From assembly GCF_000378945.1 (NCBI RefSeq), contig NZ_KB900539.1, positions 2,561,234 through 2,625,233 on the forward strand: a stretch of DNA of 64,000 bases. Direction: 5' to 3'. The stretch is from Methyloversatilis universalis EHg5 (lineage in GTDB: Bacteria > Pseudomonadota > Gammaproteobacteria > Burkholderiales > Rhodocyclaceae). Below the pieces are notes generated by a model, which made no database searches, had not been told where the DNA came from, and saw only the letters and a list, made by a program, of their open reading frames with translations. Numbering within the stretch: the first letter of the stretch is position 1; every line of letters begins with the position of its first letter. The translations under genes were made by a program, and so were the position numbers. Shown piece after piece: positions 34,154 to 59,827 of the stretch.

Positions 34154-34155
34154 GG

Positions 34156-34980: not shown

Positions 34981-35011
34981 GAAACGCTCTGGATGGGCCA
35001 CAAAAGTGAGT

Positions 35012-36166: not shown

Positions 36167-36991
36167 TTACCGGGACTCCTCTGACCTTTCATCATCGGCG
36201 TAGAAATAGACGCCGAAGGTGAAGCGCCTGTTAACGGCATCACCATCGGCTGCGGGCGTATCGTCCTTCACTTCGCCATTGAGGGCCTGCAGCGCGCTCA
36301 TGCCCAGATCCGAAGCGCGCGCGCGCAGCGCGTCGACCTCGGAGACCGACAGGCCGCGGTAGTGCACGCTGCGCTCGAACCACGGATCGCTGCGGCCCAG
36401 CGTGTTCTCCACCGCCGCCATCGCATGGTCACCGACATGCAGCGCGAGATAGCTCAGTTTTTCCTCGAACCCTTCCTGCGGCACGAAAGCAGCCGCATTC
36501 AGCACCACCTCGTCCCGCTCGGTGAGCCGGGCCACGCCCAGGCGCAGCCACTCGTCGAGTACCGGGCGTGCCCGGATGTCCTTGCTCACCGTGGCCACCA
36601 GTGCGTCGAAGGACAGATCGCCGCCAGCGCTGGCCAGCCGGGGCAGCGGGCGCGGCTGGCCGTGCTCGTCCACCCACGGCGCACGGCGGGTCCACAGGCT
36701 CACCAGCTGGGCGCCCAGCGATACGGTGCGTGGCAGGCCGGCGTGCGCGCTGGGCAGGTTGCGCAGGCGTTTCACGTCCTTGCGGTGAACGCCGGTCAGC
36801 AGACTTACGCGACTGTCGGTCACCGGCTTGCCGGCGTCACTTTCTTCAAGCGCGACCTGCACGAACACGCGCTTCAGCAGTTCAACGGCCAGCGGCAACG
36901 TGACGCCGCGGGCCAGCATCAGTCTCACCACCGGACGCAGCACGGTGCGCAGAGTCCGGGTCAGGGCATCGGGAATGGAAGGATCAGTCAT
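36167..36991 (-). CDS. DUF6502 family protein, copy B
   Basis: A 274-residue paralogue of the 34156 gene, same length and near-identical in the core (RPVVRLMLARGVTLPLAVELLKRVFVQVALEE; DSRVSLLTGVHRKDVKRLRN; RPVLDEWLRLGVA). The helix-turn-helix-like segment is conserved. It starts at the ATG at 36991 and abuts DUF5666 copy B. The pair B and pair A lie in tandem, so the module was duplicated as a unit. Confidence 0.75.
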   Translation of the reverse strand: MTDPSIPDALTRTLRTVLRPVVRLMLARGVTLPLAVELLKRVFVQVALEESDAGKPVTDSRVSLLTGVHRKDVKRLRNLPSAHAGLPRTVSLGAQLVSLWTRRAPWVDEHGQPRPLPRLASAGGDLSFDALVATVSKDIRARPVLDEWLRLGVARLTERDEVVLNAAAFVPQEGFEEKLSYLALHVGDHAMAAVENTLGRSDPWFERSVHYRGLSVSEVDALRARASDLGMSALQALNGEVKDDTPAADGDAVNRRFTFGVYFYADDERSEESR

Positions 36992-37014
36992 GGGCAGCGC
37001 AGAAACGAATCCGA

Positions 37015-37027
37015 GAAAGTATCCCAC
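37015..37027 (-). promoter_or_regulatory. GTGGGATACTTTC motif upstream of DUF6502 copy B
   Basis: Same 13-base motif as before copy A, 23 bases before the ATG, with GATACT in the -10 position. Sequence around it differs, so the motif is conserved against a diverged background. Confidence 0.55.
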
Positions 37028-37139: not shown

Positions 37140-37853
37140 TCAGCAGATGGACACGGTGCGTGTCCTGACCCCGGCGATGTCGCACACCGCATGCTCTATA
37201 TGGCAGGGCGGAACCGTATCGCCCAGGGTACACACCGCCAGCACATGCTGCGGGAAGGCCTGGCAGCGCAATACGTGCTCGACCACGCCGGCACCGTCGA
37301 GCTGCAGCGGAAAGGCAGACGACGCCAGCGACAGCGCGTCGAAACTGTGCGACAGCCCCTCGCCGGTGGCTTTCACATAGGCTTCCTTGGCCGTCCAGTG
37401 GATCAGGAAGGACAGCACGGGATTGCGTTCGGCCAGCACCCGGCTGCATTCCTCTCCGGTCAACGCCACATTCATGACGCGCCAGACATCCGCGCGGGGC
37501 GGACGCGACTCGATATCCACCCCGACCGGCGCCTGGTCGTATACGGCCAGCGCCGCAAAGCCGGAACAATGGCTCAGATTCACGTGCAGCGAGCCGTCTG
37601 TCAGTTCCGGCTTGCCGTTCGGTCCGGTCCGGAAGGCCGGGGCATGGCCGAGCAGTTCGCGCAGCACGAGGCGCTGCAGGGCGTGGGCGAGCACGAAGGC
37701 GTCGCGCCCCGGCGGGTGCAGCATGCGACGGGCGCGGCGTCGCTCTTCGGGCAGCAGCACCGCCTGTTCGAGCTGCCGCAGCCGTTCGGCACCGTGCTCC
37801 TCCACCGACGCGACGAACACCCGGACCCGGCCTGCGGCGCCCGCGGCCGTCAC
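37140..37853 (-). CDS. 4'-phosphopantetheinyl transferase (Sfp/EntD-like)
   Basis: A 237-residue enzyme, last of the operon. It loads phosphopantetheine onto the carrier domains. The magnesium and CoA motifs are VGVDIES and WTAKEAYVKATGEG; the N-terminal half has the NLSHCSG segment. I took the GTG at 37853, one base after the thioesterase stop; an in-frame ATG at 37973 would overlap that gene by 119 bases. It should activate all four carrier sites of this cluster. Confidence 0.88.
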   Translation of the reverse strand: MTAAGAAGRVRVFVASVEEHGAERLRQLEQAVLLPEERRRARRMLHPPGRDAFVLAHALQRLVLRELLGHAPAFRTGPNGKPELTDGSLHVNLSHCSGFAALAVYDQAPVGVDIESRPPRADVWRVMNVALTGEECSRVLAERNPVLSFLIHWTAKEAYVKATGEGLSHSFDALSLASSAFPLQLDGAGVVEHVLRCQAFPQHVLAVCTLGDTVPPCHIEHAVCDIAGVRTRTVSIC

Positions 37854-37854
37854 T

Positions 37855-38622
37855 TCAGGCAGCCTCGCTGCGCCGGGCACGCCCGGCCAGTGTGCACAGA
37901 AGTTCAACGATGGCCGGCCGGTCCTCTTCGACGAAGAAATGACCGCCAGGGAACATGTGCAGCGAAAATTCACCGGAAAACTCCGGCTGCCAGGCGAGCA
38001 GACCTTCCATCGGCACGCGTCCGTCGTCGAAACCGCCGGCCACCGTCACGTCGATGTCCAGCGGCGCGGCCGGCCGGTGCGTGTGTGACGCGATCAGTTC
38101 CAGATCGCCTTGCAGCACCGGCAGCATCATGTCGATCACGGCGTCGTTGTGCAGCACGCTGTCCGGTGTCCCGCCCAGATCGCGCAGATAGTCGATCAGG
38201 TCACCGCGGCTGAAGCGCGGCAGGCCGAAAGCGCTGGGCCGCGACGGCGCGATGCGGCCGGTCAGCAGCGCGGTGGCCGGCTGAGCGCGCCCGTGGGCGC
38301 GCAGCGCACGCAGCAGTTCGAATGAAATCAGTGCGCCCAGACTGTGACCGAACACCAGATCGGGCTGCACGCCCTGTGCGTGCAGCGTATGGGCCAGGCC
38401 CTGCGCCAGCGCCACCAGCGACGGCGGCAAGGGCTGACCGAAACAGCGGCCACGACCGGGCAGCTCGAGCGCCCACAGCGAAATCCGACCCTCCAGCAGC
38501 GGCTTCCAGGCAAAGAAGGACTGCGCGCTGCCGCCGGCATAGGGCACCGCCAGCACCGACGGCGCGCGCGGGCCGCCGTCGCAGATGCGGACGACGCTGC
38601 CGCAGCCCGGCTCAGACTGCAT
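37855..38622 (-). CDS. Type II thioesterase (GrsT-like)
   Basis: A 255-residue alpha/beta hydrolase with the motif FGHSLGA (Ser94) and the late His in FPGGHFF. Editing thioesterases of this kind clear wrong acyl groups from carrier proteins, and they can also release products. Opening PYAGGSAQSFFAWKPLL is characteristic. It overlaps the FAAL gene by 11 bases. Confidence 0.9.
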   Translation of the reverse strand: MQSEPGCGSVVRICDGGPRAPSVLAVPYAGGSAQSFFAWKPLLEGRISLWALELPGRGRCFGQPLPPSLVALAQGLAHTLHAQGVQPDLVFGHSLGALISFELLRALRAHGRAQPATALLTGRIAPSRPSAFGLPRFSRGDLIDYLRDLGGTPDSVLHNDAVIDMMLPVLQGDLELIASHTHRPAAPLDIDVTVAGGFDDGRVPMEGLLAWQPEFSGEFSLHMFPGGHFFVEEDRPAIVELLCTLAGRARRSEAA

Positions 38623-40396: not shown

Positions 40397-40398
40397 GG

Positions 40399-40653
40399 TC
40401 AGACTCCGGCGGTGGCTGCGCGCTGCGCAACCGCCACCGACAGTTCGCCCACGGTCGGGTACTGGAACACCAGCGCCGGCGGCAGCGTCACGCCGTAGCG
40501 GTCTTCCAGCGAGCCGACCAGATCCACCGCCTGCATCGACCCCAGGCCATAGCTGCCCAGGTTCTCGTCGGGCTCGATGTCGTGCGCCGGCACGCCGGTA
40601 CGGTCGGCGATGAAGGCGGTGATGAAGTCGGCGATGTCGTGTTCGATGCTCAT
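40399..40653 (-). CDS. Acyl carrier protein
   Basis: An 84-residue discrete ACP with GLGSMQAVDL, so phosphopantetheine goes on Ser39. Acidic N-terminal helix and LPPALVFQYPTVGELS helix III are typical of PKS carrier proteins. Placed between acyltransferase and FAAL, it probably receives the fatty-acid starter. It overlaps the acyltransferase gene by four bases. Confidence 0.93.
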   Translation of the reverse strand: MSIEHDIADFITAFIADRTGVPAHDIEPDENLGSYGLGSMQAVDLVGSLEDRYGVTLPPALVFQYPTVGELSVAVAQRAATAGV

Positions 40654-41792
40654 GGGTGTCGTCCGTGCAGGTGTGAAGACGGGTCGGCGTGCTGCGCGGA
40701 CGCGGCAGCCGGAATCAGGGTTTCGAGTGCCTGGCGTATCTGCCGGCGCAGCGCACGCGGCGTGGCGGCCGGTTCGAGCGGCGGCCAGCCGGCGATGCCC
40801 GCCCCGCGCGACCACAGCGCCGCCCAGTCGGCCACGCCCGGGGCGGGCTGCCGGTAAAGCGCGTACAGCGTCGCAGCCAGCGTCGCGTGGGGGCCGCTCA
40901 GCGGCGGCGGTGCGAACTCGGGCCAGTGCGTGATGGCAACCGGCGCCGCCGACGGCCGCCAGCCGGCGCGGATCTCTTCGATCATCGGCGCGAGCACCGG
41001 CGCCGGGCCGATCTCGACGAATTCGGTCACGCCGGCGTCGAGCATGGCGTGCACCGACTGCATCCAGCGCACCGGGCTGTACAGGTGGGCGGCCATCACG
41101 TCGGCGATCTGCGCGTCGTGCGGCCGCGCGGTCACGTTGGCCACCACCGGGATGCGCGGCGGCTGGAAAGGGGTTTCGCGCAGCGCCTGCGCGAACTCGG
41201 CCGCTGCCGGCCGCATGTGCCGCGAATGGAAGGCGCCGCTGACGCGCAGGCGCACCGCCCGCGTACCCGCCTCGCGGCAGCGCTCGACGAAGGCGTCGAT
41301 CTCGGCCGAAAGGCCGGCGACGATGGTCTGGGTCGGGCTGTTTTCGTTGGCGATCTCCAGCCCCGCGATGCCGATGCGCGCGATCAGCGCCTCGACCTGA
41401 TCGCGGTCCGGCCCGATCACGGCGGCCATCGCACCGTCGCGGATGGCGGCCATGATGCGGGCACGGCGGTCGACCAGGCGCAGCGCGTCGATGAAGTCGA
41501 GCGCACCGGCCGCCGCCAGCGCAACGAATTCGCCGATGCTGTGCCCCGCCAGCATGGCCGGTGCGCCGTGCCGGTGCTCATGATCGAGATAGCCGAGATA
41601 GCCGGTCACGAACAGCGCCGGCTGCGTGTAGCGGGTGTCGATCAGGCGGTCGGCGCCGTCGGTGCACAGATCGAGCAGGCTGTAGCCGAGCATCGCATCG
41701 GCCTGTTCGACCAGCCGCGGATAGCGCTCGAACAGTTCGACACCCATGCCCTTGCGCTGCGCACCCTGGCCCGGGAAGACGACGGCCTTCAT
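40650..41792 (-). CDS. Stand-alone malonyl-CoA acyltransferase (trans-AT)
   Basis: A 380-residue acyltransferase. GQGAQRKGMG opens it, the nucleophile is Ser85 in GHSIGE and His190 lies in GAFHSRHM. Since no KS-containing protein here has its own AT, this enzyme should load malonyl units in trans. About 80 extra C-terminal residues (from around 300) are Ala/Arg-rich and unassigned. It overlaps both neighbours by four bases. Confidence 0.92.
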   Translation of the reverse strand: MKAVVFPGQGAQRKGMGVELFERYPRLVEQADAMLGYSLLDLCTDGADRLIDTRYTQPALFVTGYLGYLDHEHRHGAPAMLAGHSIGEFVALAAAGALDFIDALRLVDRRARIMAAIRDGAMAAVIGPDRDQVEALIARIGIAGLEIANENSPTQTIVAGLSAEIDAFVERCREAGTRAVRLRVSGAFHSRHMRPAAAEFAQALRETPFQPPRIPVVANVTARPHDAQIADVMAAHLYSPVRWMQSVHAMLDAGVTEFVEIGPAPVLAPMIEEIRAGWRPSAAPVAITHWPEFAPPPLSGPHATLAATLYALYRQPAPGVADWAALWSRGAGIAGWPPLEPAATPRALRRQIRQALETLIPAAASAQHADPSSHLHGRHP

Positions 41793-44503
41793 GACTGCAG
41801 CTCCGCAGCGGCGACCGCAGGCGCAGACAGCCAGCGCGCCTCGCGCAGTTCGAGGCCGTCGATCCGGAGCAGCGTGCGACCGCCCGCCTCGCCGAACAGG
41901 CTGATCCGTCCGCTGTCGCTGTCCACCGTCACCCGCAGTCGCTGCGGGCCGCCAGCCGGCAGCGCCGCCCAGCTCACCCGCGCGGCGCGGTAAGGCAGCA
42001 GCGGCGCGCGGGCCTGATCGCGGAACGGCGCCTGGAGTGCGCGCACGACCGCTATGGTCCAGTGCATCCAGAGGCCGGCCGGGTCGAGCGGCGGCGGGTC
42101 GACATCGAGATCGAAGCTGCGTGCATCGCCGGCGACGGGGGCGTCAGCCGCGCCCTTCAGCGCGTCGGCGCCCGCCTCGATGCGCGCCACACGCAGCAGC
42201 GTGCGCGCGCCCGCTTCCGCGACGGTGCGGTAGCGAAGTCCATGACCATCGAATCCTGCTGCTAGCCGCCGGTCTTCGGCCGATGCCGCGGCCCAGGCGA
42301 CATCGACAAAACTGACCGCATGCGCGGCCGCATGGGCCGGCCAGGGCAGCAGCGTGGGCAGGCAGCGCGGCGGCGCTCCGAACAGGGCGGCCCACGGCGC
42401 GCGCAGCGCAGCGATGTCGTACGGCGTGTCCGCCGGCCCGGCTGCCGTCGCTGGCGCAGCGCTGCGGAACCACACGCGATCGCGCCGGAACGGCAGCGTG
42501 GGCAGCGGCACGCGCGGTGCGCGGTCGGCCGCACGACGCAGCGACAGCGCTTCGCTCAGCGCGGGCAGCGCCAGCTGCGCCCGCAGCCAGCCGGTCACCT
42601 GGGCCGCGTCCTGCCAGTCCGGCGCCGGCACTTGTGCGCCCGGTTCGCGCGCACTCTGCGCTGCGACCACCTGCGTCGCCTGCCCGTCGCACAGCCAGGC
42701 CACCAGCTGCAGCGCCAGTTCGCTCATGTCAGCCGCAACCACGGCCAGCCGGTACGACTGCAGGTCGCGCCCGGAGAACAGCGAATCGGCCAGCGCACGC
42801 AGCGTGGGCGCCAGCACATGCCGCGGCAGCGTGGCGCGGGCCTGCAGACGGTCTGGCGACGCCGGCGCCGGCAGCGCCTCGCTCAGCGCAGCGGCGACTT
42901 CGCCCCAGCTCATGCAGTCGCGCAGATCGAGCCCCACGCGGTCGATGCCCAGACCCTGCGCCGCCGCATGCGCGGCGCGCGCCATCGTGTCCGCAGAGAC
43001 GCCAAGCGCCGGCCACGGTGCGTCGAAGTCGAGCGCGCCGCTGGCCTGCTGCAGTGCGCGCAGTACCTGCGGCGACACGCCCGGATGCAGGTAGTCGAAC
43101 AGCTGCGCCGCACGCGCACGCAGCGTGTCGGCGTCTCTCGCCGACAGCAGCACGATGTCGACCTCGCCCGGTCGAGCCGGCCATGCAGGGGCCGGCTGTG
43201 CCTGCAGCACGATGTGCGCATTGACGCCGCCAAAGCCGAAGGAACTGACGCCGGCCACGCGCGGCCCATCGCCCCAGGCCTGCGGAGCGGCGGCGATGCG
43301 CAGCGGCGAGCCGCTCAGTTCGAGCTGCGGATTGGCCTGCGCGAAGGCCGGATGACCCGGAATCAGCCCGTGCCGCAGCGCGAGCACGGTCTTGATCAGA
43401 CCGGCGATGCCGGCCGCCGCTTCGAGGTGGCCGATGCGCGCCTTCAGCGCACCCAGCCGGATGTCGCCCTCGGGCACGCAGCCCGGATCGGCCGCGCGGC
43501 ACTGGCGCAGCGCCTCGTTCAGCCCGGCAATCTCTATCGGGTCGCCGAGCGGCGTACCGGTGCCGTGGGTTTCGACATGGGACAGATGGCGCACCGCCGG
43601 CCCGGCGGCCTGCCAGGCCGCCGCGACCACCTCGGCCTGCCCCTTGAAGCTGGGCGCGGTCAGGCTGTGCGCGCGACCGCCGTGATTTTCGGCCGAGGCG
43701 AGGATGCAGGCGTGGATGAAGTCGCCGTCGCGCAGCGCGTCGTCCAGGCGTTTGAGCACCACCACGCCGACGCCCTCGCCGCGCACATAGCCATCGGCTT
43801 CGGCGTCGAAGGGCCGGCAGCGACCGGAGGTGCTGAGCATGCCCGCCTGGCTGAAAGCCACATGCAGTTCAGGGCTCAGCATCAGGCTTACGCCGCCGGC
43901 CAGCGCCAGTTCGCACTGGCCGAGGCGCAGCTGTTCGATGGCGCGATGCACCGCCACCAGCGAACCCGAGCAGGCGGTATCCACCACCTGGCTGGGACCG
44001 CGCAGGTTCAGCACATAGGACAGCCGGTTGGCGACCAGCGTGAGCGCCATGCCGGTCGCCCGGTAGGCGTCGTTGTCGCAGTGCGCGGCGCGCATCAGCG
44101 TGGTGTACTCGGCATTGCCGACGCCGGCGAAAACGCCGACGCGCCGGCCCGACAGACTGCGTGGCGCGATGCCGGCGTCTTCCAGCGCGGTCCACGCCGA
44201 CTGCAGGAACAGCCTCTGCATCGGGTCCATCGCCTCGGCTTCGCGCGGCGCGATGCCGAAGTGGCGCAGGTCGAAGGCGTCCACGTCGTCGATGAAGCCA
44301 CCCACGTTGGAGTAGGCGGTGTTCGCCGCAGCGCCCGGTGCAGCGTGGCAGGCGCGCCAGTCCCAGCGCGACGCCGGCACTTCGGCAATCGCCGGCCGGT
44401 CAGCGAGCAGGCTGTCCCAGAAGCCGGCCGCGTCCGCTGCGCCGGGCAGACGCGCGGCCAGACCGACGATGGCGATCGCGCCCGGGGGCGGCAGCGGCTG
44501 CAT
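41789..44503 (-). CDS. PKS protein: ketosynthase with partial dehydratase-like tail
   Basis: A 904-residue protein. The KS (residues 8-450) has the full triad: Cys178 (VDTACSGSL), His in ETHGTGT and His in ARIGHLEAAAG. A post-KS linker reaches LPTLPFRRDRVWF (about 690). The last 200 residues resemble only the second half of a PKS dehydratase (DPAGLWMHWTIAVVRALQ; LLPYRAARVSW) and the HxxxGxxxxP motif is missing, so that part is likely non-catalytic. It has no ACP of its own. It starts with ATG overlapping the previous stop. Confidence 0.85.
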   Translation of the reverse strand: MQPLPPPGAIAIVGLAARLPGAADAAGFWDSLLADRPAIAEVPASRWDWRACHAAPGAAANTAYSNVGGFIDDVDAFDLRHFGIAPREAEAMDPMQRLFLQSAWTALEDAGIAPRSLSGRRVGVFAGVGNAEYTTLMRAAHCDNDAYRATGMALTLVANRLSYVLNLRGPSQVVDTACSGSLVAVHRAIEQLRLGQCELALAGGVSLMLSPELHVAFSQAGMLSTSGRCRPFDAEADGYVRGEGVGVVVLKRLDDALRDGDFIHACILASAENHGGRAHSLTAPSFKGQAEVVAAAWQAAGPAVRHLSHVETHGTGTPLGDPIEIAGLNEALRQCRAADPGCVPEGDIRLGALKARIGHLEAAAGIAGLIKTVLALRHGLIPGHPAFAQANPQLELSGSPLRIAAAPQAWGDGPRVAGVSSFGFGGVNAHIVLQAQPAPAWPARPGEVDIVLLSARDADTLRARAAQLFDYLHPGVSPQVLRALQQASGALDFDAPWPALGVSADTMARAAHAAAQGLGIDRVGLDLRDCMSWGEVAAALSEALPAPASPDRLQARATLPRHVLAPTLRALADSLFSGRDLQSYRLAVVAADMSELALQLVAWLCDGQATQVVAAQSAREPGAQVPAPDWQDAAQVTGWLRAQLALPALSEALSLRRAADRAPRVPLPTLPFRRDRVWFRSAAPATAAGPADTPYDIAALRAPWAALFGAPPRCLPTLLPWPAHAAAHAVSFVDVAWAAASAEDRRLAAGFDGHGLRYRTVAEAGARTLLRVARIEAGADALKGAADAPVAGDARSFDLDVDPPPLDPAGLWMHWTIAVVRALQAPFRDQARAPLLPYRAARVSWAALPAGGPQRLRVTVDSDSGRISLFGEAGGRTLLRIDGLELREARWLSAPAVAAAELQS

Positions 44504-47500
44504 CAGGCGGCCGCCCCGGCCAGCGCCGGCACGGCCTGCAGGTCGGCGTCCCCGGTCACCGGCACACCGCTGGCCGGGCACGGCATCGGCAGCCCGGCCT
44601 TGCGCGCACGGCTGCGACCGCGCGCGTGCTCCTTCGCCAGCTCGTGCATATAGGTGGGGCCGTGCATTTCGTAGTTGTTGCGCAGCGTCGCCAGGTACTC
44701 GCGGCGGATCACCTTCTGCTCACGCTCGATGTCGCGTTTCTGCGCGGCGACCTCCGGCAGGCTGTAAAAGCCGGCGTAGTGCTCGGCCACCACCCTGGCC
44801 TGCGCTTCCATCATGTCGAGGAAGCCCCAGGTCACCGCCTGGAACAGGCCGATGAAGGCGAGGTTGTCCACGCCCGGCACGAAGATGCGCTTGTACATCG
44901 GCACCCTGTTGTCGTCGGCGTTCAGGAACTGCTTGTCGAGGAAGGGGAAGGTGGTCTTGAAGCCGGTCGAATAGACGATGGCGTCGAACTCGCGCGCGCT
45001 GCCGTCGGCAAAGAACACCTTGCGGCCCTTGATGTACTTCACTTCGGGCACGATCTTGAGCTTGCCGTCGCCGATGCGGTTGGCGAAGTTCTCCGACAGC
45101 GTGGGCAGGCTGGACATCATCAGGTGGTCCGGCTTGGGCATGCCCATGCTGGAGTGACGCTGGATCAGCGCCTTGTACAGCCCGGTGTGCACCAGGTTGA
45201 ACAGCGGATAGGGCAGGATCTTCTTGAACCACCAGTCGTTCAGGAAGGCCATCGCGCGGTCCATGCGCAGGCCCAGCAGGTAGTGCGGCAGCACATAGAC
45301 GCCGCGGCGCAGCGAAATGCAGGTCGATTTCGCCGCGTGGCTGATGTCCACCGCCACCTGCGAACCGCTGTTGCCCACGCCCACCACCAGCACGTCCTTG
45401 TCACGGTAGTCCTCGCGGTAGCGGTAGTGCTGCGAATGGATGGCCTCGCCGTCGAACACGTCGCGGTAGTGGTAATCCGGGAAATTCGGCTCGTTGTGGT
45501 GACCGTTGGCGACGATGAGCGCGTCGTAGTGGCGCACCTCGCCGCTGTCCAGCGTCACCCGCCAGCCCTTGTCGCCGATGCGCTCCGCACGCTTGACCTG
45601 GGTGTTCAGCTGTATGCGGTCGCGGAAACCGAAGTGGTCGACATAGCTTTCCAGATAGGCATGCACCTGCTGGTGCGACGGGAAATCCGGGTAATCGTCC
45701 GGCATCGGGAAGTCGGTGTACTCGTACAGGCCGCGCGGCGTGTTCTGGTTCATCGCCTGCCACACCGAGGTGAACTTCCTGTCCGGATCGAAGGCCCAGA
45801 TGCCGCCGATGCGGTCGCGGCCGTCGAAGCAGTCGAACGGAATGCCGTACTCGGTCAGCGCCTTGCCCATCGAAATGCCGCCAACGCCGGCGCCGACCAC
45901 GCACACCCGCGGCAGCTGGCGCGGCGAGCGGCCCTTGCCGCGCAGGCGTTCGAGCATGCGTGCGCCGCCCGGGATGCGGTCGACGAAGGCGCGGGTGAAG
46001 TCGCGGGCGACCGGCGGTGCGGACAGTGGACGGGGAGCACTCATGCGACGGACCTCCTTGTTTTCGGTGGGGACGAGGGACTTCAGGAATGCGGCGGTGC
46101 GCGCTTCGCCGATGCGCGCCGAATGCGCCGCGCAGTCGAGCACCACCGGCGCGATGCCGCCTGACAGATGACGGCGCAGGCTATCGACGATGAGGTCGAC
46201 CTCGGCGTCGGCGATGTCCAGCGGCGGCAGGAAACGCAGGCTGTTGTTGTGGATCGGGCAGACCGCGACCGCCACGCCCTGCACCGGGTCGCGCAGCATG
46301 GCGCCCCACAGCAGGTAGCCGAAGCTGCGCTGCAGGAAGGGGTCGGCCCCGGCGAGGTCGAGATCGATGGTGAGCAGCAGGCCTTCGCCGCGCACCGAGG
46401 TGATCATCGGCACTTCGCGCTGCAGCGCGCTCAGCTTCGCCCTGAACGCTGCACCGGTCGTCAGCGCCCGGGCGTCCAGCCCCTGCTCGAACACGCTGCG
46501 CAGCGCGTGCAGCGATATGTGTGCGGACAGCGGGCAGCGCTGGCGGCCGGCCAGTTCCTGCAGGCGCGCCGGCGAGCGCTGCTGCGCGCGCTGCCGTACC
46601 GCGTCGCTGCACAGCACGACGCCGGTCGGCACCAGCGAATCGCACAGCGCGGTGCCCAGTGCGACCAGATCCGGCGACGGCACCTGCGGCGCGCTGTGCA
46701 GCAGGCGGCCGGTCATCAGATTGGTCTGTGTTTCGTCCACGCCGACCAGATAGCCGCCGGCTTCGCGGTGGCGGACGATCAGTTCGACCAGCTGCGGCGG
46801 CAGCGGACGGGTGGCGTTGGCGTCCACCTGTATGGTTTCGAACCACACCAGACCGATGTCGCCGGACAGCAGTTCGGCTTCGAGTTTCTGCGCCGCATCG
46901 GGTGCGTGCGCGTCGATGAACACGCTGTGCCGGTACAGCGGCTCGAACGGTTTGCGGAAAATGTCGAACACCGCGTCGTGCGACGCCACCGCGCTCAGCA
47001 TCGAGAAGCCGAGTCCGCCGGAGAAGAACAGCATGCGGCGCTTCTGCGGCACGGCGAGTGCGGCCAGCGTCAGCGCGGATTCCACCGCCGTGACATTGCT
47101 CGACGCCGGGAAGGCGTGCGGCAGACCGGTGCGCTCGCTCAACAGCGCGGCCAGTTCGCTCCAGTAGTCGGTGTTCGCGTCGTGCGCACGGGCGACACCG
47201 GCGATCACGTCCAGCGGGTTCAGGCCGCGCGGGCTGGTGCCCACGTTCACGAAGCAGTCGAGCACGGTGCGCGCATGGCCGTCGCGGTCGCGCAGCAGTG
47301 ACTTCATGCCGCGTGCCGCTTCGAAGCGGGCGTCGAAACCGTGCAGCCGCGCCACCCGGGCGTAGCCGGAATTGCCCCAGCGCAGGTGGGCGTCGAAGCA
47401 GGCGTCGACGTCGGCGTCGATGCGCCGCATCAGGCGGTGGGTGTCGCCGTCGATCACGTCGCCAAAACGCGCAAGCAGCGCTTCGCGCGCCACCGCCAGC

Positions 47501-49725: not shown

Positions 49726-49759
49726 GCGGAATCCCCGGTATGCGTGATGAAATCGGTGC

Positions 49760-51097
49760 TCATGCGGTCAGCGCATCGGCCGGCGCGCGCTGGGCGACGC
49801 CGTCGAGCAGCTTTCCGGTGACGAAATTGACCGCGCGGATGTACTTCCACAGGTCGACCTCGTAGCGGTGGCGGTCGGTGTCCATGAAGCGGCCCTGTCC
49901 GAGGTCCAGCCGCTCCGGCTGCTGCTTCATCTGCTGCAGCCGGCGGAAACTGTCGCTGTCGGCCATCCGTGCCTGCAGGCAGGCGGCGACGAAGCGTGCA
50001 GTGATGTTCAGTACGTTGCCGAGGCCGGACGGCGTATTCAGATAGCCGACGAACAGCAGGTTGTCGTGGCGCTGCGGCACCATGCGCAGGAACAGCCGGT
50101 CGAGGTCGGCGCGCGCGTCGAAATCGGCCGGGTCGAAGAAGGACAGGTCGGTGCGGAAGCCGGTGGCCCACAGGATGAGGTCGATCTGCTCGCGGCTGCC
50201 ATCGGTGAATTCGACGGTGCGGCCGTCGATGCGGCGGATGTCCGGCCGGGCGGCCAGATCACCGTGGCCGATGTGATAGAGCACCTGCGAATTCATGATC
50301 GGGTGTGCGGCGTCGATCCGGTGGTCCGGCGCCGGCAGGCCGAAGTCGGTGCCGTCGAAACCGGCCAGCTTGAACACCGCGCCGACGTGGTCCCAGTAGG
50401 CCTGGGCATCGGTGAACTTCGGCGCGATGTCCATCAGCCATTCCTGGGTCGGCTTGCCATCGACGAACTTCGGCATGTAGTGGTAGCCGCGCCGGGTCGA
50501 GTGGAAAGCCGCGTCGGCATTGAGTGCCGCGTCCACCGCGATGTCGCAGCCCGAATTGCCGCCGCCCACCACCAGCACGCGCTTGCCGCGGAACTGGTCG
50601 GCCGACCGGTAATCGCCCGAGTGCACGCTTTCGCCGTCGAAATGCCCGTCGAACTTCGGCACCAGCGGAATGCGCAGCAGGCCGTTGGCCACCACCAGAT
50701 GGGCGTAGCGGCGCACGCTGCCGTCGGCCAGTTCGCAGCGCCAGCCCCCGCCATCCGGGCGCGCACGCAGTACGCGGGTGTCGAAACGGGTGTGGGCGGC
50801 GACCGCGTAGCGCTCGGCCACCGACATCAGGTAGGCATACATCTGGCTGTGCCGCGGGTAGTGCGGATAGCCCTCCGGCATCGGCAGGTCGGAAAACTGG
50901 GTGTTGCGGCGCGAACTGATCAGATGCACCGAGCCGTACATCTTCGAAGCCGGCCCGTTCGGCTGCCAGTTGCCGCCCAGGCCGCTGCTGGCTTCCAGCA
51001 CCTCGAAATCAAGGCCGGCTTCGCTCAGCGCCTTGGCAACGCCGATGCCGGAGGCGCCGCCGCCGATGATGCCCACCGTGTGATCGAAATTCGTCAT
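49760..51097 (-). CDS. Flavin-containing monooxygenase
   Basis: A 445-residue FAD/NADPH monooxygenase. FAD motif IIGGGASGIG, FMO signature FDGESVHSGDY, NADPH motif VVGGGNSGCD and ATGFRTD. In trans-AT clusters such enzymes carry out N-hydroxylation or Baeyer-Villiger oxygen insertion, possibly on carrier-bound intermediates. It is related to but distinct from the oxygenase domain of the following gene. It lies 20 bases after the PKS gene and 34 before the next. Confidence 0.9.
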   Translation of the reverse strand: MTNFDHTVGIIGGGASGIGVAKALSEAGLDFEVLEASSGLGGNWQPNGPASKMYGSVHLISSRRNTQFSDLPMPEGYPHYPRHSQMYAYLMSVAERYAVAAHTRFDTRVLRARPDGGGWRCELADGSVRRYAHLVVANGLLRIPLVPKFDGHFDGESVHSGDYRSADQFRGKRVLVVGGGNSGCDIAVDAALNADAAFHSTRRGYHYMPKFVDGKPTQEWLMDIAPKFTDAQAYWDHVGAVFKLAGFDGTDFGLPAPDHRIDAAHPIMNSQVLYHIGHGDLAARPDIRRIDGRTVEFTDGSREQIDLILWATGFRTDLSFFDPADFDARADLDRLFLRMVPQRHDNLLFVGYLNTPSGLGNVLNITARFVAACLQARMADSDSFRRLQQMKQQPERLDLGQGRFMDTDRHRYEVDLWKYIRAVNFVTGKLLDGVAQRAPADALTA

Positions 51098-51117
51098 GTC
51101 TGTCCTTGGGTTTGCGC

Positions 51118-54100
51118 TTACTGGTCTGCGGTGGCGCGCATGCCGGCGAGCAGACGCTTGGCTTCGTCCGGCGTCATGCGGCCGGTTTTCACGCGTTCGA
51201 GGATGTCGCGCGGAGACAGCACCGGTGCGACGTGCGCCGGCACCTCGCGCGGCGGCGTCGGTGCAGCGGCATAGGCCGCCACCGGCTGTTCGATCTTCAT
51301 TACCGGTGAAGCGACGACCGGCTGCGCCCAGAAGCGCCGGCGCTGGAAGGCGGTGCCCGGCAGCGGTACGCGGCGACGCAACTGCGGCACCGCTTGCGCG
51401 TTCCAGTCGTCGAAGGCGCCGCTGACCCAGGCACGCGCCAGCGTGTCGGGTGCGCCGCCGACCGGTGCGGGCGCGCTTTCGGCATCGGCCACGCCCTTGA
51501 ACACACCCGGCGGCAGCACCGAGGCGTCGAGCTGCCAGAACTCGCCGGCCAGGCTGGCGCGCAGCCGCGCGACCAGCGACGGCAGGTCGTCGGCGATCAG
51601 CGCCAGCCGGTTGGGCTGGGCGACCCGCGCCACCCGCAGCGTGGCTGCCAGATCGGCCAGCGACAGCGTTTCGCCACGCTGCACTGCGCGCTCGACATGG
51701 ACGGCCAGCGACTGCGCCATCGTGCGCAGCGTGTCCGGCGTGCGCGCCGACAGCACGACGATGTGCGGCCCGGGCAGATCCGGCAGCGTCACCGCGGGCC
51801 ATTCTTCGACCACGATGTGCGCGTTCGAGCCCCCCGCACCGAACGAACTGACCGCCGCCAGCCGCGGCAAGGGCCGGCCTGCCGGATCGCGCGGCGCCGG
51901 CCAGTCGGCGGCAGCGGCCTGCACGCGGAAGGGCAGCTTCGAGAAATCGATGTTCGGGTTCGCCGGCTCGCTGTGTATCGACGGCGCCAGCCGGCCGTGT
52001 CGCATCTGCAGCAGCACCTTGGTCAGCGCAGCGATGCCGGCAGCGGATTCGAGATGGCCGATCTGCGACTTGACCGAGCCGATGGGCACCACCTGCCCCT
52101 CCAGCGCGCCTTCGAGCGCCATCGCCAGGCCGCGCAGTTCGATCGGGTCGCCGAGACCGGTGCCGGTGCCGTGCGCCTCGATATAGCCCAGCCGCGATGC
52201 CGGCACGCCGGCGCCGGCGAAGGCGTCAGCGATCACTTCGCTCTGCCCGACCGGCGTCGGCACAGTGAAGCCCGAAGTGCGCCCGCCGTGACCGAGCGCC
52301 GAACCGCGGATGACGCCGTGAATGTGGTCGCCGTCGCGCAGTGCGTCGGCCAGCCGCTTGAGCACCACCACGCCGACGCCCTCGCCCGGCACATAGCCGT
52401 CGCCACCGGCGCCGAAGCTGCGGCAGCGGCCGTCGCTGGCAGCGAACTGCAGCTCGCTCAGCATGCGGTAGCGATAGGGATGACTGGACAGATTGACGCC
52501 GCCCGCCAGCACCGCGTCGCACTCGCCGGCGCGCAGCAGCAGGCAGGCGGTGTGCAGTGCGGTCAGCGAGGACGAGCACATGCTGTCCAGCGCGAACGAG
52601 GCGCCGCTGAAACCCAGCGTGTAGGACACGCGGTTGGCAATGGCGGCGTAGGACGAATTGGTCAGCGTGGCCGAACCGCCGGCGCCGTAATACTGGTACT
52701 CGCCGTACATGACGCCGGCCAGCACGCCGACGCGTGCCCGCGCACCCGCGCGCGATTGCGGCGACTGCAAGGTCTGCGGCGTGTAGCCGGCATTCTCGAT
52801 GGCCAGCCAGGACGTTTCGAGGAACAGTCGCTCCTGCGGGTCCATGCGCTCGGCGTCGCGCGGCGCGATGCCGAAGAACAGCGGATCGAAACAGTCGTGC
52901 TGGTCGATCAGCGCGGCCCAGCGCGCGTAGGCGCCGGTCTTCGCCGCCTCACCCTCGCGCCGGGCGAAGGCAGGGTCGTCCGGCCAGCGCTGCGAAAGCT
53001 CGCCAACGCAGTCCATGCCCTGCAGCAGGTTGTCCCAGAAGGCGTCGGTGTCGGCGGCGCGAGGATAGCGACCGGCCATGCCGACGATGGCGATCGCCAG
53101 GCCATGCGCGTCATCGGGGGGCGTGGTCGCCGGCTCGGGCTTCGATTGTGCAGACAACGGCGATGACGGCACCGGCGACGGCATGATCATGGCCGGTGCG
53201 GCCGCGGGAGTCGGTGCGTCTGCACCGGCGAAACGTGCTGCAGCCTGTGGCTCGGACGCGATGATGCGCGAGGCGAGATCCTGCACCGTGTCGGCTTCGT
53301 ACAGCAGCGTTTTGGGCAGCGATGCGAAATGGGTGTCGAGTTCGCCGTTCAGGTCCATCACCATGATGGAATCCAGCCCCAGGGACTGCAGCGGCGTACC
53401 CGGCGTGATGCGCGCGCGGGCGATGCCGCAGGCGCGCGCCAGCATGTCGCCAAGACGACCGCACAGCGCCGGCACGACATCGCCCGCGGGCAGCTCGACC
53501 GGCACTGAGGCGGCAGCAGGTGGGGTATCGCCGGATGTCCCGTCGTCCACATTCATCAGCCGGGCCACGCCCTCGCGCCGGCCGCTGCACACCACAACGT
53601 CGGCCACGGTGCTCGCCATCGCGGCGCGCAGCGCCTGTATGCCCTGTTCGGCGTCCAGCAGTTCGAGCCCGCGCTCGGCCATCCACTGCATGACCGGCGG
53701 CGGCGCCTGCATGCCGTCCTCGCTGCGCCACAGCGGCCAGGCCAGCGCCAGCGTACGACCGCTGCGTCGGCCTGCAGCGACCGCCTGCGCACGCAGACCG
53801 GCGTAGTCGTCCAGCCAGGCATTGGCATAGGCATAGACGCTCTGGCCGACATTGCCGTGCGCGCCGGCCAGCGACGAGAACAGCACGAAAGCTTCCAGCG
53901 GGTCGTCTCGCGTCGCCTCGTCGAGCAGGCGTGCGGCGGTGATCTTGGGTGCCAGCACCGCCTGCCAGTCGTCGTCGCCGTGCTTGACGAAGAAGGCGTC
54001 GCGCAGCACGCCGGCGGCGTGGATGACGCCTCTGACCGGGCCCAGCGTCGCCCTGACCTGCTGCAGCGCGCCGGCAAGCGACACGGCGTCGGTGGCGTCG

Positions 54101-57100
54101 CCCTGCACGTAAATGACCGAAGTGCCGTCGCCGCCGAGCGCAGCCACGATACGGGCGCCCTCTTCGTCGAGCGGACTGCGGCCGAGCAGCGCGACATGCA
54201 CGCCGCAACCAGCCAGCCAGCGCGCGAAGGTGCGACCCAGCGCCCCCATGCCGCCCGTGATGAGATAGGTAGCACCGCGGGTGGGCTGCCAGCCGTCGGC
54301 CGGCGCGTGCAGCCAGGCGAAGCGGGCTTCTTCAAGCCGGCCGTCCTGCACGCGCAGGCGCGGCGCGTGACCGGGCGACGCCGGGTGGGCGAGCGCCGCC
54401 GCGATCGCGTCGGCGCGCCGCACCGGGTCGTCGAGGGTGGCCGCATCCAGTTCGAGCAGCACGGCCGACACACGTGGCGCCTCAAGATGCAGGCTTTTCA
54501 GCAAGCCGCCCATCGCCGCGTGAAAGCAGCGCGCATCGTCTGCCGACGGCGTACCGACATAGACCAGACGCAGCGCGCGGGCGCCCAGCGCACCGACCAG
54601 CAGTTGCGCCAGCGCGACGAAGCGTCGCACATCGGCTTCGACCATGTCGCGCGCGCTGCCCGCCAGCCACACCACGGTGTCCGGGAAGGCGTCGCGGTGC
54701 TGCAGCAGTTCGAGCAGCGCTCGCCGATGTGCCGGGTCGGTCGCATCCATGTCCACGCGCGAGTCGTCATGAAAGCGGAAGCGCGGCGCGGTATCGACCC
54801 GCCACAGCGTCTGCACCGGATGCAGCCGGCGCAGTCTGGATTCAAGGCCGTCGAGACGGACGCCTGCGCCGGCGGCGAGCAGCAGCGGCCCGGTCGGCAA
54901 GGCAACCGGACGGAGCGCTTCGCACGCAGTCCAGCTGCGCTGCAGCAGGTGCAGCGGCGCGCTGCGCGCGCCGTCCCAGGCGCGGAAGCAGAAGCCTTCA
55001 ATGTCCGCGAGCACGGTGCCGCCGTCGTCGCACGCCCGGAAATCGAACGCATGCAGACCCGGCGCCGGCGTGCCGCGGTAATCGATGCGCACACGCACAC
55101 GCCCGGGCAGCGGTGCATGCAGCGTGAAGCGGCGCATCGAGAATGGTACGAAGGCCCGCCCGGACGACAGCACCGATTCCGGCGCCAGCGCCACCGCGCA
55201 CTGGAACACGCCGTCAAGCAGGGCCGGGTCGAAGCGGCCGACGCCGTCGCGCTGGCTCACCGACAGTTCGGCAAGCGCGTGGTCGGCCTCTCGCACGAGC
55301 GATTGCACCGGTCTGAAATCAGGCCCGTAGGCCAGACCCATGCGCTCGAAGCGGGCATAGAAGGCGTCGCGGTCGAACGGAGCGGAAGGCCGCCCGATGG
55401 CCATCGTGGATGCAGCATCGCACGCGGTGGCCGCGTGCAGCGTGCCGCGCAGGTGTGCGGAGGCGCCATCGCCGGGCGCGCCATGCACCGCGCAACGTCC
55501 GTCCGCCTGCCGCTCCAGCCGCAGCGTGGCCGGTGCATCGAGCACCAGCGGTCGCCCCCACATCAGGTCGCGGAACTCGAGCGCGCCGCTGCCGGGCAAG
55601 GTCGCCGCCAGCAACTGCAGGAAACCGGCTGCGGGAAATACCGCGTGACCGTCGACCACGTGATTGCGGGCCCGCCAGTCGTCGGGCTCGATGCGCAGCG
55701 CATCCGGGGCCGGATCGGGCGTGACAGCACTGTCGAAGCGCACCGCCGCAGCAGCCTGCCCGCCACCGATCCAGTGCCGGGTGCGGCGGAAGGGGTAGCC
55801 GGGAAGATCGACCGGACGCGGCTGGACCGGCCATCCGGTCGCCCACCTGACCGGCGCACCGGCCAGCCAGCGTGCGGCGATCACGAGCGGATCGGCGGTG
55901 TCGGCGTCGGGTTGTGCTGCCGCATTCCCTGCCACACTCGCGGCGCCACGCTGCATGTCGTCGCCCGTAAGCTTCCGCAGCAGTTCGGCCAGTGTGGCGG
56001 CGGTAACCAGCGCACGCGCGCGCTGCGGCGTGCGGCCCAGCTGCAGCGTCGCCGCGATGCGGGCGCGGCCGGCCGGGTTGTCGAGATCGCGCATCCGCGG
56101 CGCAAGCCAGTCGCGGAAGCGGGCGATCACCGCGTCGAGCTGTTCGTCATCGCTGGCGGAAAAGGGAAACAGATGAGCAAGCGGTCCGCCGGCCACGTCC
56201 GTCGGGGTACCGGCCCATTCTTCGACCAGCACATGCGCGTTGGCGCCGCCAGCGCCGAAAGAGCTGAGGGCGGCGCAGCGCGGCCGCTCACCGTCGGGCC
56301 AGGGTTCGCCCCGTTGCGGAATGTGGAAAGGCGTGCGCGCCAGATCGACGGCCGGATTGATGCGCGCGGAGTGCAGCGACGGAAACAGCGTTCGCGCACG
56401 AAACTGCAGCAGCAGCTTGGTCAGCCCGGCAACGCCGGCCGCCGACTCAAGGTGACCGATATTGGTCTTGACCGAACCCAGCCCGCAGCGCTGCGGACGC
56501 GCCGTACCCCACGCTTCCAGCAGGCCCTCGACCTCGACCGGGTCGCCCAGCCGGGTGCCGGTTCCATGCGCCTCGACATAGCCGATGCGCGTGCCATCGA
56601 GCCCGGCCCGCTCCAGCGTGTCGCGGATCAGCGCGGCCTGGCTGCGCGAACTGGGCACCGTGTAGCCGGTGGTGCGACCGCCATGGGCGATGCCGGTGGC
56701 GCGGATGACGCCAAGGATGCGGTCACCCGCCGCGCGCGCATCGGCCAGCCGACGCAGCACGACAACGCCCACGCCCTCACCCGGCACGAAACCGTCAGCC
56801 GCATCGCCAAAGGCGTGGCAGCGACCGGTGGGTGACAGCATGCGCTGCTGGCTCAGCTGCACGTACTTGGACGGGTGCAGATAGAGGTTCACGCCACCGG
56901 CCAGCGCGACCGCACATTCATCACGACGCAGGCTTTCGCAGGCCAGGTGCAGCGCGGTCAGCGACGACGAGCAGGCGGTGTCGAGCGCAACGCTGGGCCC
57001 GTCGAAATCGAGCAGCCAGGACAGACGGTTGGCCACCGACCAGGGCATGGCAGTCGGCACCTGGCCACCGCCGCTGCGCCAGTGCGCCTCGCCCAGCAGG

Positions 57101-57870
57101 GGATAGGACAGCGTGGTGATGCCGGCAAAAACGCCGACGCGCGCCGCGCCACCCGGCTGCGTGCGCGGCAGGCGTTCCGGACCGAGGCCGGCGTGTTCCA
57201 GTGCATGCCAGGCGCACTCGATGAACAGGCGCTCCTGCGGATCCATCACGTCGGCATCGACCGCAGACACGCCGAAAAAGGCCGAATCGAAGGCGTCGAC
57301 GTCGCGCAGGAAACCGCCCCACTTCGACATGCTGGCCCACTGCGCACGCGCCACCGGATCGCGGCTGAACAGCCCGTCGGCGGACCAGCGCTCGGCCGGC
57401 ACCTCGGTGATGGCATCGCGTCCGGCCTCAAGGGCCTCCGCGAAGGACTCCAGGTTTTCGGCGCCCGGATAGCGGCCAGCGACACCGACGATGGCGATCG
57501 TCAGATCAGTAACCCCTGTCGCCGCGCAGCCCTCGTCATCAAGCGTGACCCACTCGTCGCTGAAGCGCGGCAGGGCCGCTGCGGCGCCGGCCGCAGGCCG
57601 CAGCGAAGCGGACAGCCGCGCCGCCTCGTCCGGAAAGCGCGACAGCAGATAGTCGGGCACGTCACCCACCGTCCTGCAGTCGTACAGGAAGGTCTTCGAC
57701 AGCAGCGGAAAGTGCGCTTCGAGCACCCGCCCCATCGCGACCACCGACATCGATTCGAGGCCGAGCTCCTCCAGCGCGCTGTACGCGTGAATGCGTGACG
57801 CATCGTGGCCCAGCACTTCGGCCAGCCTTTCGATGATCCACGCCAACAGACCTTCCTTCTGCGGATCCAC
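51118..57870 (-). CDS. Modular trans-AT polyketide synthase: ACP-KS-DH-KR-ACP-KS
   Basis: About 2250 residues. ACP1 with Ser40 (LGLESMS). KS1 with Cys300 (DTACSSS), HGTGT and KTNIGHLESAAG. DH with His737 in HVVDGHAVFP and Asp886/Gln890 (LLDGVFQ). KR with GGMGALG and YAYAN (Tyr1346). ACP2 with Ser1502 (LGLDSIM). KS2 with Cys1766 (DSMCSSS) and the same His motifs. No AT, MT or ER domain. The last 30 residues (SPRDILERVKTGRMTPDEAKRLL) look like a docking segment, and a similar SPEEALALIEGLE starts the next carrier protein. One full module makes a reduced alkene unit; KS2 passes it on. The start is uncertain: GTG at 57870 lies downstream of the predicted promoter; ATG at 57939 is the alternative. 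Confidence 0.9.
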   Translation of the reverse strand: MDPQKEGLLAWIIERLAEVLGHDASRIHAYSALEELGLESMSVVAMGRVLEAHFPLLSKTFLYDCRTVGDVPDYLLSRFPDEAARLSASLRPAAGAAAALPRFSDEWVTLDDEGCAATGVTDLTIAIVGVAGRYPGAENLESFAEALEAGRDAITEVPAERWSADGLFSRDPVARAQWASMSKWGGFLRDVDAFDSAFFGVSAVDADVMDPQERLFIECAWHALEHAGLGPERLPRTQPGGAARVGVFAGITTLSYPLLGEAHWRSGGGQVPTAMPWSVANRLSWLLDFDGPSVALDTACSSSLTALHLACESLRRDECAVALAGGVNLYLHPSKYVQLSQQRMLSPTGRCHAFGDAADGFVPGEGVGVVVLRRLADARAAGDRILGVIRATGIAHGGRTTGYTVPSSRSQAALIRDTLERAGLDGTRIGYVEAHGTGTRLGDPVEVEGLLEAWGTARPQRCGLGSVKTNIGHLESAAGVAGLTKLLLQFRARTLFPSLHSARINPAVDLARTPFHIPQRGEPWPDGERPRCAALSSFGAGGANAHVLVEEWAGTPTDVAGGPLAHLFPFSASDDEQLDAVIARFRDWLAPRMRDLDNPAGRARIAATLQLGRTPQRARALVTAATLAELLRKLTGDDMQRGAASVAGNAAAQPDADTADPLVIAARWLAGAPVRWATGWPVQPRPVDLPGYPFRRTRHWIGGGQAAAAVRFDSAVTPDPAPDALRIEPDDWRARNHVVDGHAVFPAAGFLQLLAATLPGSGALEFRDLMWGRPLVLDAPATLRLERQADGRCAVHGAPGDGASAHLRGTLHAATACDAASTMAIGRPSAPFDRDAFYARFERMGLAYGPDFRPVQSLVREADHALAELSVSQRDGVGRFDPALLDGVFQCAVALAPESVLSSGRAFVPFSMRRFTLHAPLPGRVRVRIDYRGTPAPGLHAFDFRACDDGGTVLADIEGFCFRAWDGARSAPLHLLQRSWTACEALRPVALPTGPLLLAAGAGVRLDGLESRLRRLHPVQTLWRVDTAPRFRFHDDSRVDMDATDPAHRRALLELLQHRDAFPDTVVWLAGSARDMVEADVRRFVALAQLLVGALGARALRLVYVGTPSADDARCFHAAMGGLLKSLHLEAPRVSAVLLELDAATLDDPVRRADAIAAALAHPASPGHAPRLRVQDGRLEEARFAWLHAPADGWQPTRGATYLITGGMGALGRTFARWLAGCGVHVALLGRSPLDEEGARIVAALGGDGTSVIYVQGDATDAVSLAGALQQVRATLGPVRGVIHAAGVLRDAFFVKHGDDDWQAVLAPKITAARLLDEATRDDPLEAFVLFSSLAGAHGNVGQSVYAYANAWLDDYAGLRAQAVAAGRRSGRTLALAWPLWRSEDGMQAPPPVMQWMAERGLELLDAEQGIQALRAAMASTVADVVVCSGRREGVARLMNVDDGTSGDTPPAAASVPVELPAGDVVPALCGRLGDMLARACGIARARITPGTPLQSLGLDSIMVMDLNGELDTHFASLPKTLLYEADTVQDLASRIIASEPQAAARFAGADAPTPAAAPAMIMPSPVPSSPLSAQSKPEPATTPPDDAHGLAIAIVGMAGRYPRAADTDAFWDNLLQGMDCVGELSQRWPDDPAFARREGEAAKTGAYARWAALIDQHDCFDPLFFGIAPRDAERMDPQERLFLETSWLAIENAGYTPQTLQSPQSRAGARARVGVLAGVMYGEYQYYGAGGSATLTNSSYAAIANRVSYTLGFSGASFALDSMCSSSLTALHTACLLLRAGECDAVLAGGVNLSSHPYRYRMLSELQFAASDGRCRSFGAGGDGYVPGEGVGVVVLKRLADALRDGDHIHGVIRGSALGHGGRTSGFTVPTPVGQSEVIADAFAGAGVPASRLGYIEAHGTGTGLGDPIELRGLAMALEGALEGQVVPIGSVKSQIGHLESAAGIAALTKVLLQMRHGRLAPSIHSEPANPNIDFSKLPFRVQAAAADWPAPRDPAGRPLPRLAAVSSFGAGGSNAHIVVEEWPAVTLPDLPGPHIVVLSARTPDTLRTMAQSLAVHVERAVQRGETLSLADLAATLRVARVAQPNRLALIADDLPSLVARLRASLAGEFWQLDASVLPPGVFKGVADAESAPAPVGGAPDTLARAWVSGAFDDWNAQAVPQLRRRVPLPGTAFQRRRFWAQPVVASPVMKIEQPVAAYAAAPTPPREVPAHVAPVLSPRDILERVKTGRMTPDEAKRLLAGMRATADQ

Positions 57871-57934
57871 GCTGATGTTCGCCCCGTTCGTAAGTCTTCT
57901 CCGTGCTGAGCGCACGGCACCGAGGCGCTGCGTA

Positions 57935-57949
57935 GCCATAACCGTGCCA
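57935..57949 (-). promoter_or_regulatory. Sigma-54 (-24/-12) promoter candidate of the polyketide operon
   Basis: On the minus strand TGGCACGGTTATGGC: perfect TGGCAC, with GG and GC ten bases apart. The -12 box is TGGC instead of TTGC. Transcription would start near 57923, about 53 bases before the GTG. A palindrome 205 bases upstream (58145-58161) is well placed as an enhancer. Confidence 0.6.
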
Positions 57950-59632: not shown

Positions 59633-59670
59633 CCTTTGTCCGGGCCGGCCCGGACTCATCACCTGATCAT

Positions 59671-59740
59671 CGGAACACGGCGCATCAACCGCCGCGTTCC
59701 GATGGAAAAACGCCCCGGACCTTATCTACCTGCCGGGGCG
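59671..59740. terminator. Paired hairpins between esterase and P450 genes
   Basis: A 12-bp stem with one mismatch (59671-59701, CGGAACaCGGCG against CGCCgCGTTCCG) and an 8-bp stem CGCCCCGG/CCGGGGCG (59711-59740). No T-run. They may end the esterase mRNA or stabilise the P450 leader. A GC palindrome TCCGGGCCGGCCCGGA lies just before. Confidence 0.45.
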
Positions 59741-59827
59741 AAACGTTCGCTGCATTGCAGCCTGTCGTCACCCAAAAGGAATGACGGCAGCCCCATTCTT
59801 TCGCCACGACACAGGGAGTACCCGCCC

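What the first reader, a model, noticed from the sequence alone, without database searches (positions are those of the whole stretch)
37140..57949. Orphan trans-AT polyketide operon on a fatty-acid starter with odd domain order
Nine genes, all overlapping or closely spaced, encode FAAL, ACP, trans-AT, two KS proteins, two flavin monooxygenase units, thioesterase and PPTase. I do not recognise the combination with tandem aminotransferase-like folds and a hydrolase in one chain. The product could be an oxygenated, partly unsaturated lipid-polyketide.
Basis: partly seen in the sequence, partly recalled or inferred. Interest (0 to 1): 0.82.

Follow-up and report, generated by a model that had tools for sequence, protein, structure and literature searches.

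The report
Toblerol-type lipid-polyketide cluster in Methyloversatilis
A methanol-using bacterium carries a gene cluster for a small oxygenated fatty polyketide, built on the same plan as a Methylorubrum cluster that very probably makes the cyclopropanol-bearing toblerols, so it is a relative of a known pathway rather than an orphan.

Summary
The operon is real: nine minus-strand genes, about 57870-37140, encode ACP-KS-DH-KR-ACP-KS, a flavin monooxygenase (FMO), ACP-hydrolase-two aminotransferase-like units-FMO, KS, free AT, ACP, FAAL, TE and PPTase. The host genus is Methyloversatilis. It is not an orphan: eight of the nine genes stand in the same order on the Methylorubrum extorquens AM1 megaplasmid (37-60% identity). 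I infer that locus to be the toblerol cluster; no paper I could open gives its coordinates. Eleven of 13 further loci keep the order; two are cut by contig ends. The odd protein, with Lys to Thr at the Schiff-base position, was printed in 2013 (PMC3870968). New here: a truncated first aminotransferase-like unit, also lysine-free; neither position holds lysine in 16 of 16 sequences; and a divergent P450-desaturase pair found in exactly the 5 of 13 congeneric genomes with the cluster. The AT lacks the ER-like half seen in AM1. Most likely product: a toblerol-like oxygenated lipid-polyketide lactone with different tailoring. A speculative target is PQQ alcohol dehydrogenase.

The parts
51118..57870 (-). 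PKS1: ACP-KS-DH-KR-ACP-KS (start uncertain, ORF open to 58041)
   Evidence: motif alignment; 41% identity to the AM1 homologue
49760..51097 (-). FMO1, stand-alone flavin monooxygenase
   Evidence: PF00743; 60% identity to AM1
44503..49725 (-). AmtP: ACP, alpha/beta hydrolase, two aminotransferase-class-III-like units without Schiff-base lysine, FMO
   Evidence: 46% identity over nearly full length to AM1
47440..48225 (-). first, truncated aminotransferase-like unit of AmtP
   Evidence: profile (weak), Pfam (below cut-off), model, fold
46171..47445 (-). second aminotransferase-like unit of AmtP
   Evidence: model of the whole region pLDDT 80.8, pTM 0.86; PDB matches PigE and putrescine aminotransferase
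41789..44503 (-). KS3 with a C-terminal region of unknown function
   Evidence: PF00109/PF02801; Cys-His-His motifs
40650..41792 (-). free-standing (trans) acyltransferase; lacks the PfaD-like ER half of the AM1 homologue
40399..40653 (-). free acyl carrier protein
   Evidence: PF00550; start codon
38612..40396 (-). fatty acyl-AMP ligase (FAAL)
   Evidence: 49% identity to AM1
37855..38622 (-). thioesterase
   Evidence: PF00975
37140..37973 (-). phosphopantetheinyl transferase (ORF limits; true start probably near 37853)
   Evidence: PF01648
59636..61042 (+). cytochrome P450, divergent, co-occurs with the cluster
   Evidence: PF00067; present in exactly the 5 of 13 genus genomes with the cluster
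61071..62102 (+). fatty acid desaturase beside the P450, same co-occurrence
   Evidence: PF00487
58553..59632 (+). GDSL lipase-like protein, neighbour in the three other Methyloversatilis loci whose flank was fetched; membership uncertain
36167..37027 (-). DUF6502 protein, downstream neighbour in the same three loci; membership uncertain

Best explanation
A toblerol-type trans-AT PKS cluster. Inferred route: the PPTase primes the carrier proteins; FAAL adenylates a fatty acid and loads it on the first ACP; the free AT supplies malonyl units; KS1, KS2 and KS3 each extend once, paired with ACP2, the ACP of AmtP and the free ACP (three KS and four ACPs fit one loading and three extensions). KR and DH of PKS1 make one double bond. 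The two FMOs oxygenate the ACP-bound chain. The aminotransferase-like pair does not transaminate by the usual Schiff-base route; it binds or reshapes the chain (about 0.6 that it is still catalytic rather than structural). TE releases the chain, probably as a lactone; the divergent P450 and desaturase add oxygen and unsaturation in place of the Rieske-P450/SDR set of AM1. Shown: genes, domains, motifs, synteny, co-occurrence. Inferred: every chemical step, the starter and the product.
For: Domains. All eight core genes in the same order in AM1 and in 11 of 13 loci; the other 2 are cut by contig ends. In the window proteins the KS, DH, KR, ACP, AT, FAAL and TE motifs are intact. AM1 makes toblerols, e.g. 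the furan lactone toblerol E (PMC6857680, passages and one section); [quoted passage not shown] 11 tob genes respond together (PMC8969499, passages), and the AM1 locus has 11 neighbouring same-strand genes from SDR to Rieske-P450 among the ORFs I chose. Lysine is absent at both positions in 16 of 16 sequences and no lysine is invariant in the region. P450 and desaturase track the cluster, 5 of 5 against 0 of 8 (Fisher p 8e-4, not corrected for kinship).
Against: No source I could open states that this AM1 locus is tob; the toblerol paper is not held. The count of 11 is weak: another same-strand ORF, 4878-5534, lies 2 kb upstream. Tailoring genes differ: no separate AM1-type SDR or DUF3047 gene at the window locus, and the P450s share 23% identity over 209 columns. 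The window AT lacks the ER-like half. The DH motif departs in four copies (AM1, R2-1, Methylopila, Methylosinus), so reductive steps may differ between members. Chain length and starter are unknown.
Confidence: 0.8

Rival explanations
1. A sister pathway (not exclusive of the best explanation) that shares the assembly core with AM1 but makes a product without cyclopropanol; the ring in toblerol would come from AM1-specific genes (SDR, DUF3047, Rieske-P450, ER).
For: SDR and DUF3047 have no counterpart at the window locus; in the loci they turned up only in L029, L030 and L032, though the flanks held beyond the core are mostly about 1 kb or less. The window AT lacks ER.
Against: Core genes, including both FMOs and AmtP, keep their order; no ring-forming enzyme of toblerol is known to me, so the core remains a simple source.
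Confidence: 0.35
2. The AM1 locus is not tob but another PKS of AM1, and the whole family is uncharacterised.
For: No coordinates seen in print; the close relative R2-1 has further type I KS loci outside this cluster.
Against: Unusual trans-AT architecture, strain and gene number fit.
Confidence: 0.1
3. AmtP is a working PLP aminotransferase that installs nitrogen.
For: Class III fold and the pyridine-binding Asp conserved in 16 of 16.
Against: Thr or Ser at the Schiff-base position in 16 of 16; Glu or Gly in the first unit; no invariant lysine.
Confidence: 0.05

Closest known systems
Toblerol (tob) cluster of Methylorubrum extorquens AM1 (identity of the AM1 locus inferred)
   Same: PKS1, FMO1, AmtP, KS3, AT, ACP, FAAL, TE in the same order, 37-60% identity; Lys to Thr in AmtP
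   Different: No separate SDR or DUF3047 and no Rieske-P450; AT without ER; adds PPTase and a divergent P450-desaturase pair
CP-ABHy-PLP1-FMO proteins F5RC11 (Methyloversatilis universalis) and C5B3B9 (M. extorquens) in Milano et al. 2013, PMC3870968
   Same: Same domain layout and Lys to Thr, as printed there (passages)
   Different: Listed with product unknown; the passages and section I read do not link them to toblerol, and the word tandem does not occur in the text
Pseudomonas and Pseudochelatococcus relatives (L024, L025, L026, L028, L033, L034)
   Same: Same core order
   Different: Ser instead of Thr in all six; in the five Pseudomonas loci AmtP and its FMO are separate genes
PigE of prodigiosin biosynthesis
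   Same: First-ranked solved fold for the double region
   Different: PigE is annotated as a transaminase; here the lysine is gone

Membership tests
toblerol-type cluster | core gene order PKS1-FMO-AmtP-KS-AT-ACP-FAAL-TE as at the AM1 locus | tested here: met
toblerol-type cluster | same tailoring genes as AM1 (SDR, DUF3047, Rieske-P450) | tested here: not met
   not found at the window locus; another P450 and a desaturase instead
toblerol-type cluster | AM1 locus is the published tob locus | tested here: inconclusive
   paper not held; strain and gene number fit
toblerol-type cluster | product is a cyclopropanol polyketide | not testable with these tools
   needs metabolite isolation
trans-AT PKS | no AT domain in the PKS proteins, AT as a separate protein | tested here: met
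trans-AT PKS | KS clades of trans-AT type | not tested
   no transATor run
class III aminotransferase (PLP enzyme) | fold | tested here: met
   (predicted models)
class III aminotransferase (PLP enzyme) | Schiff-base lysine | tested here: not met
   0 of 16 sequences at either position
FAAL | fatty acyl-AMP ligase sequence class | tested here: met
   the best single-enzyme NCBIfam models are fatty-acid--AMP ligases (e.g. 9.8e-127), all below their own cut-offs
malleicyprol (bur) cluster | ketol-acid reductoisomerase-like ring former (recalled; PMC9359912 seen as listing and one reference passage) | tested here: not met
   no such hit among the nine operon proteins and the neighbours scanned

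The most novel reading that the evidence does not exclude
The family makes cyclopropanol lipids whose target is PQQ-dependent alcohol dehydrogenase. Cyclopropanol is used as an inhibitor of methanol dehydrogenase (PMC6028718, PMC9893580, passages). The compound would be a chemical weapon or self-brake on alcohol oxidation, made by an assembly line whose signature part is a lysine-less aminotransferase pair.
Probability: 0.1. Interest if true: 0.85.

Novelty: new variant of a known kind. Interest (0 to 1): 0.45.

Why it matters
It turns a seemingly unique operon into one member of a sparse family shared by methylotrophs and pseudomonads, shows which genes are core and which are swapped, and so narrows the search for the enzymes that build the cyclopropanol and lactone. 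The lysine-free double aminotransferase fold is a well-conserved domain whose chemistry is unknown. The link to PQQ alcohol dehydrogenases is directly testable.

Tried and rejected
Active aminotransferase: rejected, because no lysine stands at either position and none is invariant. Wholly new cluster: rejected by AM1. Malleicyprol-like: no ring-forming reductoisomerase among the proteins scanned.

PQQ alcohol dehydrogenase as evidence is weak. Presence: 5 of 5 Pseudomonas carriers (two of them outside the sample) against 73 of 146 sampled non-carriers gives p 0.06. Copy number: 3 of 3 against 2 of 146 gives p 2e-5, but the threshold was chosen after seeing the data, at most nine candidates were scored per genome, and two of the three carriers (G317, G321) are close kin. 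One carrier, Pseudochelatococcus, gave no PQQ alcohol dehydrogenase. The sampled family, order and class backgrounds were not measured.

The KS3 C-terminal region gave no NCBIfam family and in AM1 only a sub-threshold PS-DH match. The relatives scan used two peptide patterns, so 13 loci is a lower bound. The regexes missed sites: the KS3 cysteine was found in 7 of 13 loci and the free-ACP serine in 6 of 13, and those misses were not aligned; PKS1 was aligned in 12 loci. L031 was dropped from the 16-row alignment for its frame break; its one-frame translation reads Glu and Thr at the two positions.

Paper searches that gave no printed link: toblerol: 7 papers; AM1, META2, polyketide: 1 paper, not read; cyclopropanol, natural product, methanol dehydrogenase: none. 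One search was on oxygen-inserting PKS parts; its papers were seen as a listing only.
Full report
OBSERVATION. Between about 57870 and 37140 on the minus strand lie nine genes, overlapping or up to 34 bases apart. Pfam and NCBIfam scans give: PKS1 ACP-KS-DH-KR-ACP-KS; a stand-alone FMO; a 1740-residue protein (AmtP) with ACP, alpha/beta hydrolase, aminotransferase-like region and FMO; a KS protein; a free AT; an ACP; a FAAL; a thioesterase; and a PPTase. The start at 57949 is out of frame.

ORGANISM AND SPREAD. The window lies in a 4.09 Mb genome of the genus Methyloversatilis: genome G003 of the same genus has a contig of the same length as the M. discipulorum record behind L022, and G007 one of the same length as the record behind L023. 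The aminotransferase-like region is present in 5 of 13 genomes of the genus; in 4 of 199 genomes drawn from the family, all four in this genus; in 1 of 111 genomes of the genus of Methylobacterium sp. R2-1, that one being R2-1 itself; and in 3 of 149 genomes sampled from the genus of G317 (Pseudomonas), all already known carriers. In the plasmid collection only AM1 matches the region at 1e-40. A genome-wide scan with two peptide patterns found 13 loci: Methyloversatilis (L022), a MAG of the same genus (L023), five Pseudomonas, Pseudochelatococcus, a Beijerinckiaceae MAG, Methylopila, Methylosinus, Methyloligella and Methylobacterium.

SYNTENY. The M. extorquens AM1 megaplasmid NC_012811 carries all eight core genes in the same order; identities run from 37% (ACP) to 60% (FMO1). 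Eleven of the 13 loci hold the eight genes in that order; L023 and L027 are cut by contig ends. In the five Pseudomonas loci AmtP and its FMO are separate genes. AM1 adds SDR, DUF3047 and a Rieske-P450, and its AT carries a PfaD-like ER half, as do L029, L030 and L032, which the window AT lacks. A tree of 16 aminotransferase-like regions puts the five Methyloversatilis rows together (100/100) and the alphaproteobacterium Pseudochelatococcus with Pseudomonas (100/99), against host taxonomy, which fits horizontal transfer (midpoint root; the place of the Methyloversatilis group among the other non-AM1 copies is open).

LINK TO TOBLEROL. AM1 produces toblerols (PMC6857680, passages and one section; PMC8969499, passages); the line is described as unusual trans-AT PKS-like (PMC12338139, one section). 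Eleven tob genes are named as co-induced; the AM1 locus has eleven neighbouring same-strand genes among the ORFs I chose, with one more same-strand ORF 2 kb upstream. That the two are the same locus is my inference, about 0.9; the original paper is not held.

THE AMINOTRANSFERASE-LIKE PAIR. The 736-residue region models well (pLDDT 80.8, pTM 0.86) and matches PigE and putrescine aminotransferase. The first 262 residues are weak by sequence: a 12-row profile finds 34 PDB sequences with E up to 10, one of them at E <= 0.001, the named molecules being transaminases or relatives, while Pfam gives only sub-threshold matches. By fold they match aminotransferases. At the Schiff-base position the second unit has Thr in 10 and Ser in 6 of 16 sequences, the first unit Glu in 15 and Gly in 1. 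The pyridine-binding Asp is kept in 16 of 16. Milano et al. 2013 (PMC3870968; outline, passages and one section) had already reported the layout and the Lys to Thr change for M. extorquens and M. universalis. The degenerate first unit is not in what I read of it. I read the pair as a single-chain pseudo-dimer; this is inference.

ASSEMBLY LOGIC. In the window all three KS keep Cys-His-His, and DH, KR, ACP, AT, FAAL and TE motifs are present; in the relatives PKS1 was aligned in 12 loci, AT, FAAL and TE motifs were found in 13 of 13, and some KS3 and free-ACP motifs were missed by the regex and not followed. That these motifs mark activity is established knowledge recalled, not tested. One loading and three extensions would use all four carrier proteins. 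The toblerol E side chain is oxygenated, and an epoxide precursor is suggested by the analogue paper; the P450 and desaturase of the window could serve a like compound.

CLUSTER EDGE. P450 and desaturase (59636-62102) occur in exactly the five genomes with the cluster and in none of the other eight at E <= 1e-60. In G007 they lie on another contig than AmtP, whose contig ends inside the cluster, so adjacency there is untested.

PQQ IDEA. PQQ alcohol dehydrogenases pass the family cut-off in 15 of 16 carrier genomes, against 76 of 149 sampled Pseudomonas genomes, 3 of them carriers. This is suggestive only; see Tried and rejected.

Noticed in passing
32393-37027: Two DUF6502 genes alternate with two DUF5666 genes on the minus strand, downstream of the PPTase; the first DUF6502 gene is kept beside the cluster in three other Methyloversatilis loci.
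   Followed up: partly
14332-16789: A DDE transposase next to an AbiV-type HEPN gene, in and beside the lowest G+C stretch of the window, 0.582 at 16-18 kb.
   Followed up: no
58553-59632: A GDSL lipase-like gene beside the P450, whose C-terminus looks to me like a PEP-CTERM tail (no Pfam hit for it); a second GDSL gene at 28782-29627 and PEP-CTERM proteins at 20702-21652 and 29634-30260.
   Followed up: no
L031:78-16429: The Methyloligella copy matches in broken pieces in PKS1, AmtP and KS3, with a frame break seen in AmtP; sequencing error or decay.
   Followed up: no
L014:24734-26749: AM1 and three relatives carry an AT followed by a weak PfaD-like ER match.
   Followed up: partly
21682-23361: SbmA/BacA-like ABC transporter gene.
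   Followed up: no
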